A DNA stretch of 64,000 nt. Source: Anaerolineae bacterium. Lineage in GTDB: Bacteria; Chloroflexota; Anaerolineae; Aggregatilineales; Phototrophicaceae. Within the stretch, counting starts at the first letter, position 1. Each line of letters begins with the position of its first letter. The notes under the pieces are model-generated. The model saw only the letters and a list, made by a program, of their open reading frames with translations. It did not search any database and was not told the origin of the DNA. A program made the position numbers and the translations under genes. Shown in pieces: positions 18,622-26,780 of the stretch. The stretch lies in contig JAGWBD010000007.1 of the NCBI GenBank assembly GCA_021296065.1, positions 1 through 64,000 of the forward strand. The letters run 5' to 3'.

Positions 18622-20496
18622 TCAGGACGGGGTGAAGACGCGCGCCTGTTCCACAAGGTCGGCGGCGAGGTCGTAGCGGCCGAAGGCCGGGATGATGTAG
18701 GTGCCCTGCACCTGGTCGCGCATTGCCGTCAGCAACTCACCGGCGATGCGCAAGCCCTCCTGCGGGGCATCCTCAGCGGCATCGGCCATACGTTCAATGA
18801 CCTGCGGCGGAATGTGAATGCCGGGCACTTCGTTGTGCAGAAAGCGGGCGTGCTTGACGCTGTAGAGCGGCATCAGGCCCATAAGCACGGGCAGGCGCAG
18901 GGGCTCGCCGATCAGGGTCTCGTAGAAGTCGTGGAAGGCGCGGATGCGTTCTGGCTCGAAAACGGCCTGGCCGAGCGCAAAACTGGCGCCGCCCTGCAGC
19001 TTGCGTTGCAGGACGCGAATCTCACGCTCCGGGTTGCTGGCATTCATGTTCAGCGCGCAGCCGACGGTGAAGGAGGTGGGCTGGCCGATGGAGTGACCGG
19101 CCTGGTCCAGGCCGTGATTGAGGCGCTGGCGGATGAGGTGAATCAGGGCCGAGGGCGCCAGGTCATAGTGGTCCATGGCTTCGGGGTAGTCGCCGACCTG
19201 GGTGGGGTCGCCCATGACCACGAAAAGGTTGCGCAAGCCGAGGGCATGGGCCGCCAGCAGGTCGCCCTGCACGCGCAGCAGGTTGCGGCCGCGGGTGGGG
19301 AAGTGCAGCACGGTCTCCACGCCCAGACGCGACTGCAGCAGGTGGCCGATGGCCCAGGGGCTCATACGCATGCGCGCGGCGGGGCTGTCGGCCACGTTGA
19401 TGAAGTCGGCGCCGGCCTCCTGCAGGGTGCGGGCGGCGTTGAGCAGGCGCTGCGGCGTGTAGCTGCGCGGCGGGGCCATTTCGACGCTGATGACGAACTC
19501 ACGGCGCGTCAACTGGTCCGAGAGCCGCGTGGGGCGGTCGGGCGCGAGCTCTTCCTCGTCCTCAATATGGACCAGCGCGGGCAGGGGCGGCGACGACGCC
19601 TGCGGGTCGTCGAGGGCCCGGCGCATGGCGGCGATGTGTTCAGGGTGTGTGCCGCAGCAACCGCCGATCAGGACCGCGCCCAGATCGCGAAAGGTGAGGG
19701 CGTAGTCGGCGAAGTAGTCGACGGTGGCCGGGTACATCACGCGGTCGCCGACGGCCTCGGGGAAGCCGGCGTTGGGCTGGGCGGAGTAGCGCTGGCCCGG
19801 CGCGCTGTGTTGCATGGCCTGCAGCAGGCGCGCGATCTGGGCCGGCCCGCTGCTGCAGTTGATGCCGATGATGTCCGCCCCTGCGTCCACCAGACCGCGG
19901 GCGACGGCGCCCGGCAGCCAGCCCAGCTGGGTGCGGTCGTCATTTTCAAAGGTCATCTGGCAGGCGACGGGCATGGCCGGGTCCAGTTCACGCAGCGCGG
20001 CCAGCCCTTCCAGCAATTCGTTGAGGTCGCTGAAAGTCTCCAGCACAATCAGGTCCACGCCGGCGGCCAGCAGCGCTTCGGCCTGTTCGCGAAAGGCCGC
20101 GCGGGCGTCCTCACGGGCCAGGCGGCCATAGGGTTGCAGGCGCACGCCGAGGGGCCCGATTGACCCGGCCAGATAGAGGTTTTCGCGACCGTCTTCGCGC
20201 ATGGCGTCGCGGGCGATCTCAACGGCGGCGCGGTTGATGGCCGACAGTTGCTCCGCCAGGCCGTGCCCGTCCAGTTTGAAGCGGTTGGCGCTGAAGGTAT
20301 TGGTCTCCAGCAGCTCTGAGCCGGCGTCCAGGAAAGCGCGATGCACGCGGGCCACCCGCTCCGGCTCGTGGAGGCAAAGCGCATCAAAGCAGGCACTGAT
20401 CGGCAGGCCCTGTTCGTGCAGCATGGTGCCCATGGCGCCATCCACCAGCAACGGCGTTGGCTGCTGCAGGCGTTGCGCGAAGGGGAGGGCAGGCAT
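18622..20496 (-). CDS. Bifunctional homocysteine S-methyltransferase / 5,10-methylenetetrahydrofolate reductase
   Basis: LVDGAMGTMLHEQG...VLIGGCCGTHPEHIAAMRRAL plus C-terminal MetF-type TIM barrel. Confidence 0.93.
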   Translation of the reverse strand: MPALPFAQRLQQPTPLLVDGAMGTMLHEQGLPISACFDALCLHEPERVARVHRAFLDAGSELLETNTFSANRFKLDGHGLAEQLSAINRAAVEIARDAMREDGRENLYLAGSIGPLGVRLQPYGRLAREDARAAFREQAEALLAAGVDLIVLETFSDLNELLEGLAALRELDPAMPVACQMTFENDDRTQLGWLPGAVARGLVDAGADIIGINCSSGPAQIARLLQAMQHSAPGQRYSAQPNAGFPEAVGDRVMYPATVDYFADYALTFRDLGAVLIGGCCGTHPEHIAAMRRALDDPQASSPPLPALVHIEDEEELAPDRPTRLSDQLTRREFVISVEMAPPRSYTPQRLLNAARTLQEAGADFINVADSPAARMRMSPWAIGHLLQSRLGVETVLHFPTRGRNLLRVQGDLLAAHALGLRNLFVVMGDPTQVGDYPEAMDHYDLAPSALIHLIRQRLNHGLDQAGHSIGQPTSFTVGCALNMNASNPEREIRVLQRKLQGGASFALGQAVFEPERIRAFHDFYETLIGEPLRLPVLMGLMPLYSVKHARFLHNEVPGIHIPPQVIERMADAAEDAPQEGLRIAGELLTAMRDQVQGTYIIPAFGRYDLAADLVEQARVFTPS

Positions 20497-20996: not shown

Positions 20997-23900
20997 TCAG
21001 CCCTGGTCCAGGATCATGGCCGAGCGGTCGAGATTGCCGACGCTGAAGTAGCGCGCGGCGGGGTGATGCACGACTATGGCGGCCGTGCTCTGCTCCGGTA
21101 TCCACTGGAAGGCGCTGGTAAGTTCCAGGCCCAGCTCCGTCGCGTTGGGCAAGAGACGCAACACCGTCTCGTGGTCGGCCAGCTCCGGGCAGGCCGGATA
21201 GCCCCAACTGTAACGCTTGCCCTGCTGCGGCGGAATGCCCAGCTCGCGCGAAATATGCTGATGCACGTAGACGGCCGTGGCCTCGGCGGCCTGCACGGCC
21301 AGGCCGTGGAAGAACCAGGCCTCGCTGTATTCGTCGGCCGCCTGCAGGGCGTCGACGCCTGCGGTGGCGACTGCGCCGACGGTCACGATTTGCAGCGCGA
21401 CAACGTCGATCCGGCCGCCTGCCGCCGCCGCGAAGTAGTCGGCGATGCAAAGTTGGTCGCCTGTCGGCTGGCGCGGAAAGGCGAAACGGGCCAGTTCGCG
21501 ACGCTCGCCGGCGGCCAGCGCCTCGTGCTGCCAGACGATCAGGTCATCGCCTTCGCTGCTGGCCGGGAAGTAGCCGTAGACGGCCTGGGGTTGCAGGGAC
21601 TTGTCGCGCAGGGCCTGGCGGCTCATGGTTTCGAGGCGGGCCGTGAACTCGGCCTCCAGTTGCAGCCATTCCTCGCCGCGGGTGTTTTTGGCGCCCCAGG
21701 AGAGGCGGAAGAGCTCCGGCCGGTGGATGTGTTGCAACACGATCTCCAGCGGCAGGTAGTCGATGGTTTTGGCGCCGAAGAAGGGCGGCTGCGGAATGGA
21801 CGGCGCCGCGGCCACACTGCTGCCGCCGTTGGCGCGGGCCCGCTTGCGTCCGGCAGCGGGACGTTCCTTTTCGGCCCTGGCGCCCTGCAGCAAACCGGCG
21901 AGCATGTCCGTGCGACGCTGCGGGTCCACCAGGCCGTCAACGACTTCAAGCCCTTCGAAAGCATCCTTGCAATAGAAGACGCCCGGGGCGTAGGGCTGGC
22001 CGTCGTCCTCAAGGAAGAGGATGCGGCGGCCGAAGCGGCGATTGATGGCCGCGCCGCCGATGAGCACCGGATAGTCGAGGTCGCGCCGCGCCAGTTCGTT
22101 GACGATCAGCGGCATCTGCTTCGAGGTGCTGACCAGCAGCGCGCTGAGGCCAATGGCGTCGGCCCGCAGCGCCTGGGCCTGGTCGATGATGGTGTTGGCC
22201 GGCACCTGCTTGCCGAGGTCGTGCACGGTGTAGCCGTTGTTGCCGAGGATGGTCTTGACCAGGTTTTTGCCGATGTCGTGCACGTCGCCGTAGACCGTGG
22301 CCAACACGACCGTGCCCTTGCTGGCGCCCTCCAGGCGTTCCATGAACTGCTCGAGGTAGGCGACGGCGCGCTTCATGGCCTCGGCGCTCTGCAGCACGAA
22401 AGGCAGGATCAACTCGCCGGCGCCAAACTTGTCGCCGACCTCCTTCATGGCCGGCAGCAGCACGTTGTTGAGCACAGAGATGGCGTCCTGGCGCGTCAGG
22501 CAGTCATCGACCAGCGCCTCAAGGCCGTCTTTCTTGCGATGCACGATCTGCCAGTGCAGGGCACCCTCGCTGCTCATGTCGGCGGTGGGGTCTTCCAGCT
22601 CCTTGCCAGCCAGCTGCACCTCGTTCTGTTCGTAGAACTGGATGAAGTCGGTGAGGGCGTCCTCGTGGCGGTTGAAAATCAGGTCTTCGGCCAGCTTGCG
22701 CTGCTCCGGCGGGATCTCCGCCAAAGGCGTGATGTGCGCCGGATTGACGATGGCCATGTCGAGGCCGGCCTGCACTGCGTGCCACAGGAAGACGCTGTTG
22801 AGCACGCCGCGCGCCGCCGGTCGCAGGCCGAAGCTGACGTTGCTGATGCCCAGTGCCGTCAGCACGCCGGGGATCTGCTCCTTGATGAGCCGCAGCCCCT
22901 CAATCGTTTCGATGGCGCTGTCGCGCAGTTCCGCCTGGCCGGTGGTCAGTGGGAAGGTGAGCGTGTCGTAAATGAGGTCCTCGGGGCTCATCCCGTAGTC
23001 CTCACAGGCGATCTGCGTGATGCGCTGCGCGACGGCCAGCTTGTGCGCGCGCCCGTGGGCCATGCCCTCTTCGTCGATTGTCATGGAGAGCACGCCGGCG
23101 CCGTGTTCGCGCGCGACGGGCAGAACAGTGTCAATGCGTTCGCGGCCATTCTCGAGGTTGTTGCCGTTGATGATGGCGCGGCCGGGGTACTGCTCCAGTG
23201 CGGCGGCGGCGACGTCGGCTTCGGTGGTGTCGATGATCAGCGGGGCCGGCACGGCCAGCGCCAGTTTCTTGACCAGTTGCTGCATCTGTTCCAGTTCGTC
23301 GTCGCGCTCGGTCAGAGCGACGCAGACGTCCAGCATGTGCGCGCCGCGCTCGACCTGGTCGACGGCGATCTGCACGACGCCGTCGTAGTCGTCGGCCAGC
23401 AGCAGTTGCTTGACCTTGCGGCTGCCGAGGCTGCTGACGCGCTCGCCGATCATGGTGGGGCCGGGATGCTGCACCATGGGCGTGGCGGTCATGGCGCTGG
23501 AGGCCTTCGCCTCGTGTTGCGTCTCGCGTTGCGCCGGCGCGCGCAGGGTGACGGGGCGGCCGTCCTGCAGGTCGCCATGCACCTTGTTGACCAGTTGCGC
23601 CAGGTGCTGCGGCGTGGTGCCGCAGCAGCCGCCGACCACGTTGACGCCGCGCGCGGCGAAGTCGGCCACCATGTCGCTGAAGGGGCCGGGTTCCATTGGG
23701 TAAACGGCCTCGCCCTCGACGTTGACGGGCAGGCCGGCGTTGGGCAGCACGCTGAGCGGCAGGCGACTGCTCTCCAGCAGATGTTGCACGGGCGCGCGCA
23801 TGTATTCGGGGCCGGTGGAGCAGTTGAGGCCGATGACGTCGACCGGCAGGGCCTCCAGCGTGGTCATGGCGCTGTCGATGTCGGTGCCGAAGAGCATGCG

Positions 23901-24536
23901 GCCGCTGGTATCGAGGGTGACCTGCACCTGCAGCGGGACGCGCGTGCCGGAATCAGCGAAGTAACGCTGGATGCCGTGGATGGCGGCCTTGACCTCCAGC
24001 ATGTCCTGGCTGGTCTCCAGCAGCAGCAGGTCGGCGCCGCCCTCGCAGAGGCCCTGGGCCTGCTCGTAAAACAGGTCAGCCAGTTCGCCCCAGGTGATGT
24101 CGCTGAGGTCGGGGTCTTCGCCGCCGGGCAACTTGCCGGAGGGCCCCATGCTGCCGGCGACGAAGCGCGGCAGGCCGGTGGTCTCTTCAAATTTGTCGCA
24201 GGCGCGCCGCGCGAGGCGGGCGGCATTGCGGTTGATCTCCAGCGTGCGTTCGCCGAGGCCGTATTCGCCGAGCGTGAGGCGGTTGCCGCGGAAGGTGTTG
24301 GTCTCGACGACCTCGCAGCTGACGGCGAGGAAGGACTCGTGGATGGCCTCGATCATGTCCGGGCGGGTGACGGAGAGGTAGTCGACACAGCCCTCGTAGC
24401 GCTCGCCGCCGAAATCGGCCGCGACTGGATTGCGCGCCTGGATGCTGGTGCCCATGGCGCCGTCAAAGAGCACGACGTGGTCGGCGATGGCGTCGAGGTA
24501 ACGTCGGTTGGTGAAGGTACGCTGCGCCCGCTTCAT
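20997..24536 (-). CDS. metH: Methionine synthase, cobalamin-dependent
   Basis: FDGAMGTSIQARN, VGGCCGTTPQHLAQL, VLATVYGDVHDIGKNLVKTILGNNGYTVHDLGKQVP; start at MKRAQRTFTN. Confidence 0.95.
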   Translation of the reverse strand: MKRAQRTFTNRRYLDAIADHVVLFDGAMGTSIQARNPVAADFGGERYEGCVDYLSVTRPDMIEAIHESFLAVSCEVVETNTFRGNRLTLGEYGLGERTLEINRNAARLARRACDKFEETTGLPRFVAGSMGPSGKLPGGEDPDLSDITWGELADLFYEQAQGLCEGGADLLLLETSQDMLEVKAAIHGIQRYFADSGTRVPLQVQVTLDTSGRMLFGTDIDSAMTTLEALPVDVIGLNCSTGPEYMRAPVQHLLESSRLPLSVLPNAGLPVNVEGEAVYPMEPGPFSDMVADFAARGVNVVGGCCGTTPQHLAQLVNKVHGDLQDGRPVTLRAPAQRETQHEAKASSAMTATPMVQHPGPTMIGERVSSLGSRKVKQLLLADDYDGVVQIAVDQVERGAHMLDVCVALTERDDELEQMQQLVKKLALAVPAPLIIDTTEADVAAAALEQYPGRAIINGNNLENGRERIDTVLPVAREHGAGVLSMTIDEEGMAHGRAHKLAVAQRITQIACEDYGMSPEDLIYDTLTFPLTTGQAELRDSAIETIEGLRLIKEQIPGVLTALGISNVSFGLRPAARGVLNSVFLWHAVQAGLDMAIVNPAHITPLAEIPPEQRKLAEDLIFNRHEDALTDFIQFYEQNEVQLAGKELEDPTADMSSEGALHWQIVHRKKDGLEALVDDCLTRQDAISVLNNVLLPAMKEVGDKFGAGELILPFVLQSAEAMKRAVAYLEQFMERLEGASKGTVVLATVYGDVHDIGKNLVKTILGNNGYTVHDLGKQVPANTIIDQAQALRADAIGLSALLVSTSKQMPLIVNELARRDLDYPVLIGGAAINRRFGRRILFLEDDGQPYAPGVFYCKDAFEGLEVVDGLVDPQRRTDMLAGLLQGARAEKERPAAGRKRARANGGSSVAAAPSIPQPPFFGAKTIDYLPLEIVLQHIHRPELFRLSWGAKNTRGEEWLQLEAEFTARLETMSRQALRDKSLQPQAVYGYFPASSEGDDLIVWQHEALAAGERRELARFAFPRQPTGDQLCIADYFAAAAGGRIDVVALQIVTVGAVATAGVDALQAADEYSEAWFFHGLAVQAAEATAVYVHQHISRELGIPPQQGKRYSWGYPACPELADHETVLRLLPNATELGLELTSAFQWIPEQSTAAIVVHHPAARYFSVGNLDRSAMILDQG

Positions 24537-24566: not shown

Positions 24567-24760
24567 GGACCGGATACTGATTAGTGCGACGTATTTGTCG
24601 CACAACTCATTTTGTGCGACAAAATCACCTGAATCTGTCCGACAAATCGATTTGTGTGTCAAAAGTGTCACACAAACCGGTTAGTGCGACAATTATATCG
24701 AAATATGTCGCACAAATCGATTTGTGCGACAAAAGTGTCATTCAAATACAGTTTCACCTT
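24567..24760. repeat. Phased array of 24-nt (imperfect) palindromes upstream of metH
   Basis: Copies at 24597, 24637, 24667, 24707 (last is a perfect palindrome GTCGCACAAATCGATTTGTGCGAC) with degenerate half-sites at 24567 and 24737. Confidence 0.92.
24692..24697 (-). promoter_or_regulatory. Candidate metH -10 hexamer TATAAT between palindrome copies 3 and 4
   Basis: Reverse complement of AATTATATCGAAATAT contains TATAAT; no convincing -35 seen. Confidence 0.4.
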
Positions 24761-25874
24761 CTGCGATTCTCAAGAGCTCTGTGAATATAAATACGGACGG
24801 GAGCTGTCCTCTTCCAGGTTTGACTTCGGCTAGTATGCCACTGTCTCTTATTCTCTCCAGAATTCGCTGTGCTGCCCGAACTGGGACATTTGTGTCTTTC
24901 ACCAAGCCCGAAGTGGTGAAGACTGGACGATTGAAAATCCCGTCCAATACATGGACTCCGTATTTGGATCTACCTATTTCAGTAATCTGACGCTTCATTT
25001 CGTCGTACAGCAACATAATTTCCCGCACTTTTGACAGGTTGTCTACAGCCTGACTCTCAACAGCGCCAAGAAAGAACCGGCACCATCCGGTCCAATCATT
25101 GTCACTTGAGACCGCAAGTAACCCGTCAAAGTATTCATCCCGATTGGTCTCCAAGTAATTGCTAATGTAAAAAACCGGAGCTTGGATGAGACCGTATTTC
25201 CACATTAACAGTGGAATGAGAATGCGTCCCAGACGTCCATTTCCATCCCAAAATGGATGAATTGCTTCGAACTCGGCATGTAGCACAGCAATCTCGACAA
25301 GCGGATTGGCATGGTTATCTTTTGTTGCATATACCTCCCATGTCTTCATGGTTTGAGACAGTTTGCTGGCAGCGACAGGTACATAAATCGCATCTTTCAT
25401 AGTGCTTCCAGATGGGCCAATCCAGTTCTGGTTAGTGCGATACTTGCCAGGAGTCATTCTTCTTCCACGTGCACCAGACAGAAGAATCTGGTGAACCCTT
25501 TGTATGACGCTTTGAGACATTGGCTGAACTGCAAGTACTTTCCTCGCTTCCTGCATGGCAACTCTGTAGTTTATTACTTCATCATAGTCATCCCGACGCG
25601 AAGGGGATTCTGGCTCATGGCCAGCCTCAAAAAGCAGCACTTCCTTCATGGTTGCCTGAGTTCCTTCAATCCGGGAGGAAAGCACTGCTTCCTGCCTGGT
25701 TAACGGGGATAGAAGCACATCACTATTGGGAATGGCATCCAGTGCACCGGAATAACGTCCCAGTGCTTGGGCTGCCCGTTCAATCTGCGGGGATAGTTCC
25801 TTCCAATCAAGATCCTGATCGGGTGGAAAAGCCGCTTGTTGGTAATGCACCGGCGCCATCGTGCTGCTCTCCAC
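24738..25874 (-). CDS. Fic domain protein (AMPylase-type) with inhibitory motif and C-terminal winged-helix-like region
   Basis: HPFWDGNGRLGRI Fic motif; N-terminal SSRIEGT inhibitory (S/T)xxxE(G/N)-type motif. Confidence 0.95.
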   Translation of the reverse strand: MESSTMAPVHYQQAAFPPDQDLDWKELSPQIERAAQALGRYSGALDAIPNSDVLLSPLTRQEAVLSSRIEGTQATMKEVLLFEAGHEPESPSRRDDYDEVINYRVAMQEARKVLAVQPMSQSVIQRVHQILLSGARGRRMTPGKYRTNQNWIGPSGSTMKDAIYVPVAASKLSQTMKTWEVYATKDNHANPLVEIAVLHAEFEAIHPFWDGNGRLGRILIPLLMWKYGLIQAPVFYISNYLETNRDEYFDGLLAVSSDNDWTGWCRFFLGAVESQAVDNLSKVREIMLLYDEMKRQITEIGRSKYGVHVLDGIFNRPVFTTSGLVKDTNVPVRAAQRILERIRDSGILAEVKPGRGQLPSVFIFTELLRIAEGETVFE

Positions 25875-25903: not shown

Positions 25904-26164
25904 CCTGGACCTGCCAATGCGCATCAGTCGGACGGGCCCGCCGCTGATGGCGATCCCGACGCTTCGGAGCTTGCCGCGAGCATGGCCGGCTGACGCGACC
26001 ACTGTCTACGTAAGACTGTCGTCAGTCTGGCAGAGATTCAGGTGGCTGTCAATATGACCTCAGTCCAGGCAGGGCGGACACTGCAATACATCCTCTGCCT
26101 GTTGCAGCATATGTGGTTTCCGCATATCATGAAAGCAAGGCGTTTCCGGCAGTGGGGAAGTGAA

Positions 26165-26350
26165 ATGGAGACCGAAAAGAAAGCTGGCAAGACCCGCAAA
26201 CCTGCCCGGCCCGAAACCGTTGTACAGGACGGTCAAAATGACAGGCCCTGGCCCACGCTGGAAAATGAAGTGATGGAAAAATGGGCCAGGAACATCAAGA
26301 AGAAGCGCAAAGAACCCGGCTCCATCCCCTACCCGTTCAACCGTGAGTGA
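26165..26350 (+). CDS. Small putative antitoxin partner of the PIN protein
   Basis: METEKKAGKTRKPARPETVVQDGQNDRPWPTLENEVMEKWARNIKKKRKEPGSIPYPFNRE; 8-nt overlap with downstream PIN ORF. Confidence 0.55.
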   Translation: METEKKAGKTRKPARPETVVQDGQNDRPWPTLENEVMEKWARNIKKKRKEPGSIPYPFNRE

Positions 26351-26780
26351 TGCAGGCTACGTCCTCGATACAAACATCGTCATCGAAAGAGGCAAGCGAT
26401 CACCGGATCACAACGTGATCCGGTGGTTTGATTCTGTGCCGCGCGACAGGCTGTTTCTGACGCCGCCGGTCTATGATGAATTGCTTAAAGGTATAGACGA
26501 AACTGACAGGGAGAATCCCGCAAGACAGCGAAAATGGCTTGAAGAGTTCAGAGCGAGATACGGGTGGCTGGAACTGCCAGGGGGCAGGCCGGTCGTCATG
26601 ACGGATGCCATGGCGCGGGTTCTCGTGGAAAACAATGGAAGCATACCAAGGAAGATTTACGTAGACTTTCTCATTGGCATGATAGCGATCAACCATGAAA
26701 TGGTGGTCGTTACCAGAAACGAAAAAGATTTCAGACGTTTGGGTATACCATTTGCAAACCCTTTTAGATTCAGGGGCTAA
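26343..26780 (+). CDS. PIN-domain toxin (VapC-like)
   Basis: YVLDTNIVIERG, PVYDELLKG, VDFLIGMIAINHEMVVVTRNEKDFRRLGI. Confidence 0.85.
   Translation: MSDAGYVLDTNIVIERGKRSPDHNVIRWFDSVPRDRLFLTPPVYDELLKGIDETDRENPARQRKWLEEFRARYGWLELPGGRPVVMTDAMARVLVENNGSIPRKIYVDFLIGMIAINHEMVVVTRNEKDFRRLGIPFANPFRFRG

What the first reader, a model, noticed from the sequence alone, without database searches (positions are those of the whole stretch)
24567..24760. Helically phased palindrome array upstream of metH
Seen directly: four 24-nt imperfect palindromes start at 24597 (GTCGCACAACTCATTTTGTGCGAC), 24637 (GTCCGACAAATCGATTTGTGTGTC), 24667 (GTCACACAAACCGGTTAGTGCGAC) and 24707 (GTCGCACAAATCGATTTGTGCGAC, perfect). 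Degenerate half-sites fit the same grid at 24567 and 24737. Start-to-start spacing alternates 30/40/30/40/30 nt, giving a 70-nt higher-order unit; every step is close to an integral number of helical turns. The array begins about 30 nt from the metH start codon, and a minus-strand TATAAT (24692-24697) sits between copies 3 and 4. This looks like a cooperative operator array. If transcription starts near 24685, copies 1-2 would also form hairpins in the metH leader RNA. I do not recognise the motif as a MetJ box or a SAM/B12 riboswitch.
Basis: partly seen in the sequence, partly recalled or inferred. Interest (0 to 1): 0.75.

Follow-up and report, generated by a model that had tools for sequence, protein, structure and literature searches.

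The report
DNA-binding array of anti-phage Fic gene
The repeated palindromes in front of the methionine synthase gene are most probably docking sites for the neighbouring anti-phage toxin protein (a SoFic-type Fic enzyme); the same regularly spaced array follows or precedes relatives of that gene across many bacterial phyla, which suggests how this dangerous enzyme is kept under control.

Summary
In detail: four palindromes at 24597, 24637, 24667 and 24707, spaced 40/30/40, with outer half-sites on the same grid; in this genome they occur only here. The reading as a metH regulator is mostly wrong about ownership. The array starts on the stop codon of a neighbouring fic gene (24738-25874, minus strand; full-length match to the SoFic anti-phage defence model) and follows fic, not metH. 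metH upstream regions of 17 relatives outside the genus lack it. SoFic-type genes from at least eight phyla and from prophages carry arrays with the same half-site (TTTGTNNNNCA) and 30/40 spacing, mostly just 3' of fic, sometimes 5'. E. coli and other enterobacterial sofic genes carry 70-nt-period arrays ending on the start codon. The variable half-site bases covary with the C-terminal winged helix of Fic, not with its catalytic core, and this was repeated in independent loci. Best reading: an operator array bound by the Fic protein itself, which may also control the next gene (metH here, restriction-modification genes in six other loci). Binding is inferred, not shown. One palindromic operator is known for the Fic-HTH protein CccR; no such array was found in the papers searched. 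New variant of a known kind.

The parts
24736..24746 (-). outer half-site TTTGAATGACA, overlapping the fic stop codon (24738-24740)
   Evidence: sequence; same -30 position in L004, L007, L011, L012, L015, L021
24706..24731 (.). site 1, perfect palindrome TGTCGCACAAATCGATTTGTGCGACA
24692..24697 (-). TATAAT in the 14-nt gap between convergent half-sites; possible -10, no -35 seen
   Evidence: GATAAT at nearly the same place in same-genus G002
24666..24691 (.). site 2, TGTCACACAAACCGGTTAGTGCGACA
24636..24661 (.). site 3, TGTCCGACAAATCGATTTGTGTGTCA
24596..24621 (.). site 4, TGTCGCACAACTCATTTTGTGCGACA
24581..24591 (+). outer half-site TTAGTGCGACG at the metH end of the array
   Evidence: sequence, same grid
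24738..25874 (-). fic gene, SoFic-type class II Fic AMP-transferase (FIC motif HPFWDGNGRLGR, inhibitory helix SSRIEGT)
24780..24968 (-). C-terminal winged helix of Fic (about residues 303-365; likely recognition helix 332-344), the proposed reader of the array
   Evidence: AlphaFold model pLDDT 89; covariation with half-sites
20997..24536 (-). metH, next gene after the array; ATG 45 nt from the last half-site

Best explanation
The array is the operator array of the adjacent SoFic-type fic gene and is bound by the Fic protein through its C-terminal winged helix. The unit is an 11-bp half-site, TTTGTNNNNCA, whose middle bases give specificity. Half-sites stand in alternating orientation, with convergent pairs 14 bp and 4 bp apart, so palindrome centres fall 40 and 30 bp apart and the whole repeats every 70 bp. 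A Fic dimer probably grips the convergent pair across the 14-bp gap, and neighbouring dimers probably pack cooperatively. Bound Fic should block transcription that starts in or crosses the fic-metH spacer, so metH is a likely passive target, and should hold the toxic enzyme at its own gene. SHOWN by computation: place, spacing, half-site, link to fic, covariation with the winged helix. INFERRED: physical binding, cooperativity, repression, effect on metH, effect on enzyme activity.
For: A fixed rule (two or more sites 30/40/41 apart) finds arrays beside 24 of 30 fic genes at 44% or more identity to this one (21 at the 3' end, 5 at the 5' end, 2 of these at both); at the 5' end of 6 of 46 more distant ones; in 0 of 3040 shuffles; and in 1 of 669 other stretches of the same loci. 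Site-pair distances peak at 40, 41, 30 and 70. 104 half-sites from 19 loci share TTTGT and CA at the same positions. Winged-helix distance predicts half-site distance after removing Fic-core distance: partial Mantel r 0.56, p 0.0003; in 12 loci not used to define the motif r 0.41, p 0.004; all 27 loci r 0.39, p 0.0003; the reverse partial test is not significant. Convergent pairs across the 40-nt step match best: 67 of 88 variable bases against 48.6 for random same-locus pairing, p 5e-5. Full-length SoFic defence model, E 1e-107; best PDB match SoFic 3eqx, TM 0.82. Enterobacterial sofic genes carry 70-nt-period arrays ending on the start codon. The HTH of the Fic protein CccR binds an inverted repeat and represses its own promoter (PMC9755527); CbFic2 binds DNA through its HTH (PMC10628234).
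Against: No binding or expression data. With the exceptions L004 and L052, 3'-array loci show no half-sites above shuffle level within 250 nt 5' of fic (L016's 5' array lies beyond that), so ordinary repression of fic's own promoter is not evident here. In Caldilineaceae (L017, L018, L021) the next gene points toward fic, so the array cannot be that gene's promoter. No array was called in 6 of 30 close relatives. Site anchors of the first set were placed by hand, and Mantel tests do not fully remove shared ancestry.
Confidence: 0.8

Rival explanations
1. A dedicated methionine, B12 or SAM regulator binds the array as the metH operator; fic next door is a coincidence.
For: The array ends 45 nt from the metH ATG; a TATAAT lies between sites; fic-array-metH is kept in three species of the genus.
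Against: No array upstream of metH in 17 relatives; arrays accompany fic without metH in other phyla; half-sites covary with the Fic winged helix; no riboswitch or other Rfam family at its gathering score.
Confidence: 0.05
2. Besides or instead of regulating transcription, the array is a DNA-based safety catch: local high-density sites at the end of the fic gene capture newly made Fic and hold it in a harmless DNA-bound state, released when the DNA is degraded, unpaired or titrated during phage attack.
For: The array lies at the 3' end with no 5' operator seen in most such loci; the half-site overlaps the stop codon; DNA-bound CbFic2 is proposed to switch from AMPylating monomer to deAMPylating dimer (PMC10628234); the CTD of EcSofic controls toxicity (PMC12249575).
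Against: No direct evidence; in CccR the regulatory and toxic functions were independent (PMC9755527); EcSofic needs to be a dimer to be toxic, the opposite of the CbFic2 model; 5' arrays look like ordinary promoter operators.
Confidence: 0.2
3. The array acts as RNA: tandem hairpins in the fic 3' UTR or metH leader, as an RNA antitoxin or attenuator.
For: Palindromes would fold as hairpins in RNA; EcSofic has a protective downstream gene, AS1 (PMC12249575).
Against: Mismatches between arms are G-U compatible no more often than chance: 16 and 14 against 16.2 expected; 9 and 11 against 7.5. Half-sites stay conserved even where pairing is broken; arrays also lie 5' of fic.
Confidence: 0.05
4. 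REP or MITE-like selfish repeat, or the end or target site of a mobile element carrying fic.
For: fic is patchily distributed (4 of 154 genomes of the order) and found in prophages and plasmids; arrays on both sides in L004, L016 and L052; L052 looks like a tandem duplication of the fic end plus array.
Against: Single locus in the genome; arms differ between species and covary with the Fic winged helix; no transposase or insertion boundary seen.
Confidence: 0.04

Closest known systems
CccR of Yersinia pseudotuberculosis (Fic-HTH toxin and autorepressor, PMC9755527)
   Same: class II Fic enzyme with C-terminal HTH; inverted-repeat operator beside its own gene; dimer needed for DNA binding
   Different: one pair, AGATAATCAT-N26-ATGATAATCT, inside its own promoter; here a tandem array with 14- and 4-bp convergent gaps and a 70-nt period at the gene's 3' end, and another half-site
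SoFic defence protein (Shewanella oneidensis 3eqx/3zcn; E. coli EcSofic 9VJC, PMC12249575)
   Same: full-length match to the PADLOC SoFic model; fold TM 0.82; enterobacterial homologues also have 70-nt-period arrays
   Different: enterobacterial arrays are 5' of fic with half-site TTTTATCGACA and 35/35 centres; the window branch has TTTGTNNNNCA at 30/40, at the 3' end
CbFic2 of Coxiella burnetii (PMC10628234)
   Same: Fic with C-terminal HTH; DNA binding changes oligomeric state and activity
   Different: tested only on random DNA; histone target; no array described
Restriction-modification controller (C) proteins (own knowledge)
   Same: small operator array just upstream of a restriction-modification gene, as in L007, L010, L014, L019, L020 and L051
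   Different: C proteins are small Xre-type HTH regulators, not Fic enzymes

Membership tests
SoFic-type class II Fic defence protein | Fic_N plus Fic domain with HxFx(D/E)GNGRxxR motif | tested here: met
   Pfam PF13784 and PF02661; motif residues invariant in 16 homologues
SoFic-type class II Fic defence protein | N-terminal inhibitory helix [S/T]xxxE[G/N] | tested here: met
   SSRIEGT, S66/S67/E70 invariant
SoFic-type class II Fic defence protein | C-terminal winged-helix domain | tested here: met
   helices 306-315, 321-328, 332-344 and wing strands in a model of pLDDT 89; 3eqx TM 0.82
SoFic-type class II Fic defence protein | full-length defence-family profile match | tested here: met
   PADLOC SoFic E 1e-107; but below the NCBIfam SoFic equivalog cut-off, 184 against 550 bits, so a divergent branch
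SoFic-type class II Fic defence protein | AMPylation, toxicity and phage protection | not testable with these tools
   needs bench work
Fic-HTH autoregulatory operator (CccR kind) | inverted repeats bound by the HTH of the Fic protein | tested here: inconclusive
   covariation supports it; no binding assay
Fic-HTH autoregulatory operator (CccR kind) | operator in the fic promoter | tested here: not met
   array is at the 3' end of fic; no half-site above shuffle level within 250 nt 5' of the window fic
metH operator (MetJ box or riboswitch) | conserved upstream of metH in relatives, or Rfam match | tested here: not met
   absent in 17 relatives; no Rfam family at gathering score
REP/MITE repeat | many dispersed copies in the genome | tested here: not met
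   only this locus

The most novel reading that the evidence does not exclude
The 70-nt arrays are a conserved second component of the SoFic defence system: a DNA antitoxin or sensor that holds the toxic AMP-transferase at its own gene and releases it when phage attack disturbs host DNA.
Probability: 0.17. Interest if true: 0.88.

Novelty: new variant of a known kind. Interest (0 to 1): 0.64.

Why it matters
How SoFic-type toxins are kept silent and then triggered by phage is stated as an open question (PMC12249575). A family-wide DNA array with conserved spacing, matched to the protein's winged helix and present in E. coli sofic loci, gives a directly testable candidate for that control and explains an otherwise puzzling palindrome cluster. 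The half-site rules would also let binding specificity be predicted from protein sequence.

Tried and rejected
First genome pattern was mistyped and found nothing. AlphaFold without alignment failed, pLDDT 35. The Fic protein as a single query found no viral relatives; the alignment did. Riboswitch-like text 5' of fic in L005/L009 was not confirmed by Rfam. microRNA hits over the array are far below gathering scores and reflect the palindromes. 'of' accepts only genome handles. Class-wide searches added few loci. Distant DNA search of E. coli with prophage fic DNA found nothing; with Cedecea fic DNA it did. Rejected: metH-specific operator, REP/MITE, RNA element (see rivals). A TATAAT-like word in the 14-nt gap is shared with few arrays (window; GATAAT in G002; 5' arrays of L004 and L052), so it is not used as evidence for a common promoter.

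Full report
WHAT IS THERE. The four palindromes are at the stated places. As 26-mers they start at 24596, 24636, 24666 and 24706; each is two 11-bp half-sites pointing outward (TTTGTGCGACA and its reverse complement) with 4 bp between. Between successive palindromes the half-sites face each other across 14 bp (40-nt step) or 4 bp (30-nt step). The motif is unique to this place in the window and in the rest of the available genome. At 10.5 bp per turn the steps are 2.86 and 3.81 turns, so helical phasing is only approximate.

WHOSE IS IT. Two same-genus species keep the order fic-array-metH with diverged arrays. In 17 relatives of other genera metH has no array, and this type of fic is in only 4 of 154 genomes of the order. 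In contrast, fic homologues from Pseudomonadota, Acidobacteriota, Planctomycetota, Verrucomicrobiota, Poribacteria, Thermodesulfobacteriota, Myxococcota and Chloroflexota carry arrays beside fic without metH. A fixed rule calls arrays at 24 of 30 close homologues and in 0 of 3040 shuffles. Prophage and plasmid loci, not used to define the motif, repeat the result: four of them (L090, L091, L092, L112) have 3' arrays, and L096-L098, L106, L110 and a Riemerella plasmid have 30/40 arrays 5' of fic. The 5' arrays show that the element is not tied to the next gene.

WHAT READS IT. The Fic protein has an intact catalytic motif, an inhibitory helix and, in a good model (pLDDT 89), a C-terminal winged helix; its fold matches SoFic (TM 0.82) and its sequence the PADLOC SoFic model over the full length. 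It falls below the NCBIfam SoFic equivalog cut-off, so it is a divergent branch. 104 half-sites from 19 loci share TTTGT....CA while positions 6-9 vary by locus. Distances between winged helices predict distances between these variable bases even after the Fic core is removed: r 0.56 in the first set, 0.41 in an independent set, 0.39 in all 27; the opposite partial test is null. This is the main evidence that Fic itself reads the array. The best-matched half-sites are those facing each other across 14 bp, which points to that pair as the dimer site. The G-U test gives no sign of selection for RNA pairing.

HOW IT MAY WORK. Precedent: CccR, a Fic-HTH toxin, binds one inverted repeat in its promoter and represses itself (PMC9755527). 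CbFic2 is proposed to change oligomeric state and activity on DNA (PMC10628234). In EcSofic the C-terminal domain controls toxicity (PMC12249575). In the window branch the array is at the 3' end, and no 5' half-sites were found for most such genes. In six loci (L007, L010, L014, L019, L020, L051) the array lies between fic and a restriction-modification gene read in the same direction (L020 by sequence likeness of its start to L010 and L014); here it lies between fic and metH. Repression or roadblocking of the next gene is therefore plausible, but in Caldilineaceae the next gene is convergent, so this cannot be the general function. Control of Fic itself, by transcription where the array is 5' and perhaps by sequestration where it is 3', is the common denominator. 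This last step is inference.

GENERALITY. Cedecea, Pantoea and a Salmonella plasmid carry sofic genes with inverted-repeat arrays ending on the start codon, with a 70-nt period in the first two; an E. coli strain has five 70-nt units there, and 278 of 5426 complete E. coli genomes hold a gene matching the query. The half-site is different (TTTTATCGACA) and centres are 35/35, but the 70-nt period and the 13-14-bp convergent gap agree (read from the sequence). I found no description of such arrays in the papers searched; the library holds only open-licence papers.

EVOLUTION. In the genus, metH is 92% identical between the window and its two relatives, while Fic is about 57-58% and the array has diverged too; the three Fic proteins form one fully supported clade. 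Fast divergence fits a defence gene whose operator changes with it.

LIMITS. No binding, expression or toxicity data exist for this locus. Anchors in the first set were hand-placed; the independent set used an automatic rule. Mantel tests do not fully remove phylogeny. The genome is an incomplete, unnamed assembly.

Noticed in passing
window 26042-26780 (+): Small ORF (102 aa) plus PIN-domain gene (145 aa), looking like a VapBC-type toxin-antitoxin pair, divergent from fic; conserved in both same-genus species, the PIN at about 78-84% but the putative antitoxin at only 58% identity; the PIN match in G001 comes in two pieces.
   Followed up: partly
L048 2445-2745 (own genome contig C162): A second, different fic gene of the same genome (504-aa frame) has three 85-nt repeats at 107-109-nt spacing overlapping its 5' end: possibly another Fic-linked array with its own period.
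   Followed up: partly
L117 2100-2510; L114 2285-2457; L115 2285-2457: E. coli, Cedecea and Pantoea sofic genes have 70-nt tandem inverted-repeat units (five or more in the E. coli strain) running up to the start codon; copy number differs between the records.
   Followed up: partly
L052 upstream of fic: The array 5' of fic follows what looks like the 3' end of a second, decayed fic copy: tandem duplication of fic plus array.
   Followed up: partly
L016 5' and 3' of fic: Poribacteria locus with long 70-nt-period arrays on both sides of fic; part is masked as N in the record.
   Followed up: no
L098 500 nt 5' of fic: Prophage-borne fic preceded by about five near-identical 70-nt units: recent array expansion.
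   Followed up: no
L051 987-1334 and 2751-4118: fic-array sits between a short HsdR N-terminal fragment and a full hsdR start, as if inserted with partial duplication.
   Followed up: no
window 18622-20496 (-): Homocysteine S-methyltransferase/MTHFR fusion gene just downstream of metH.
   Followed up: no
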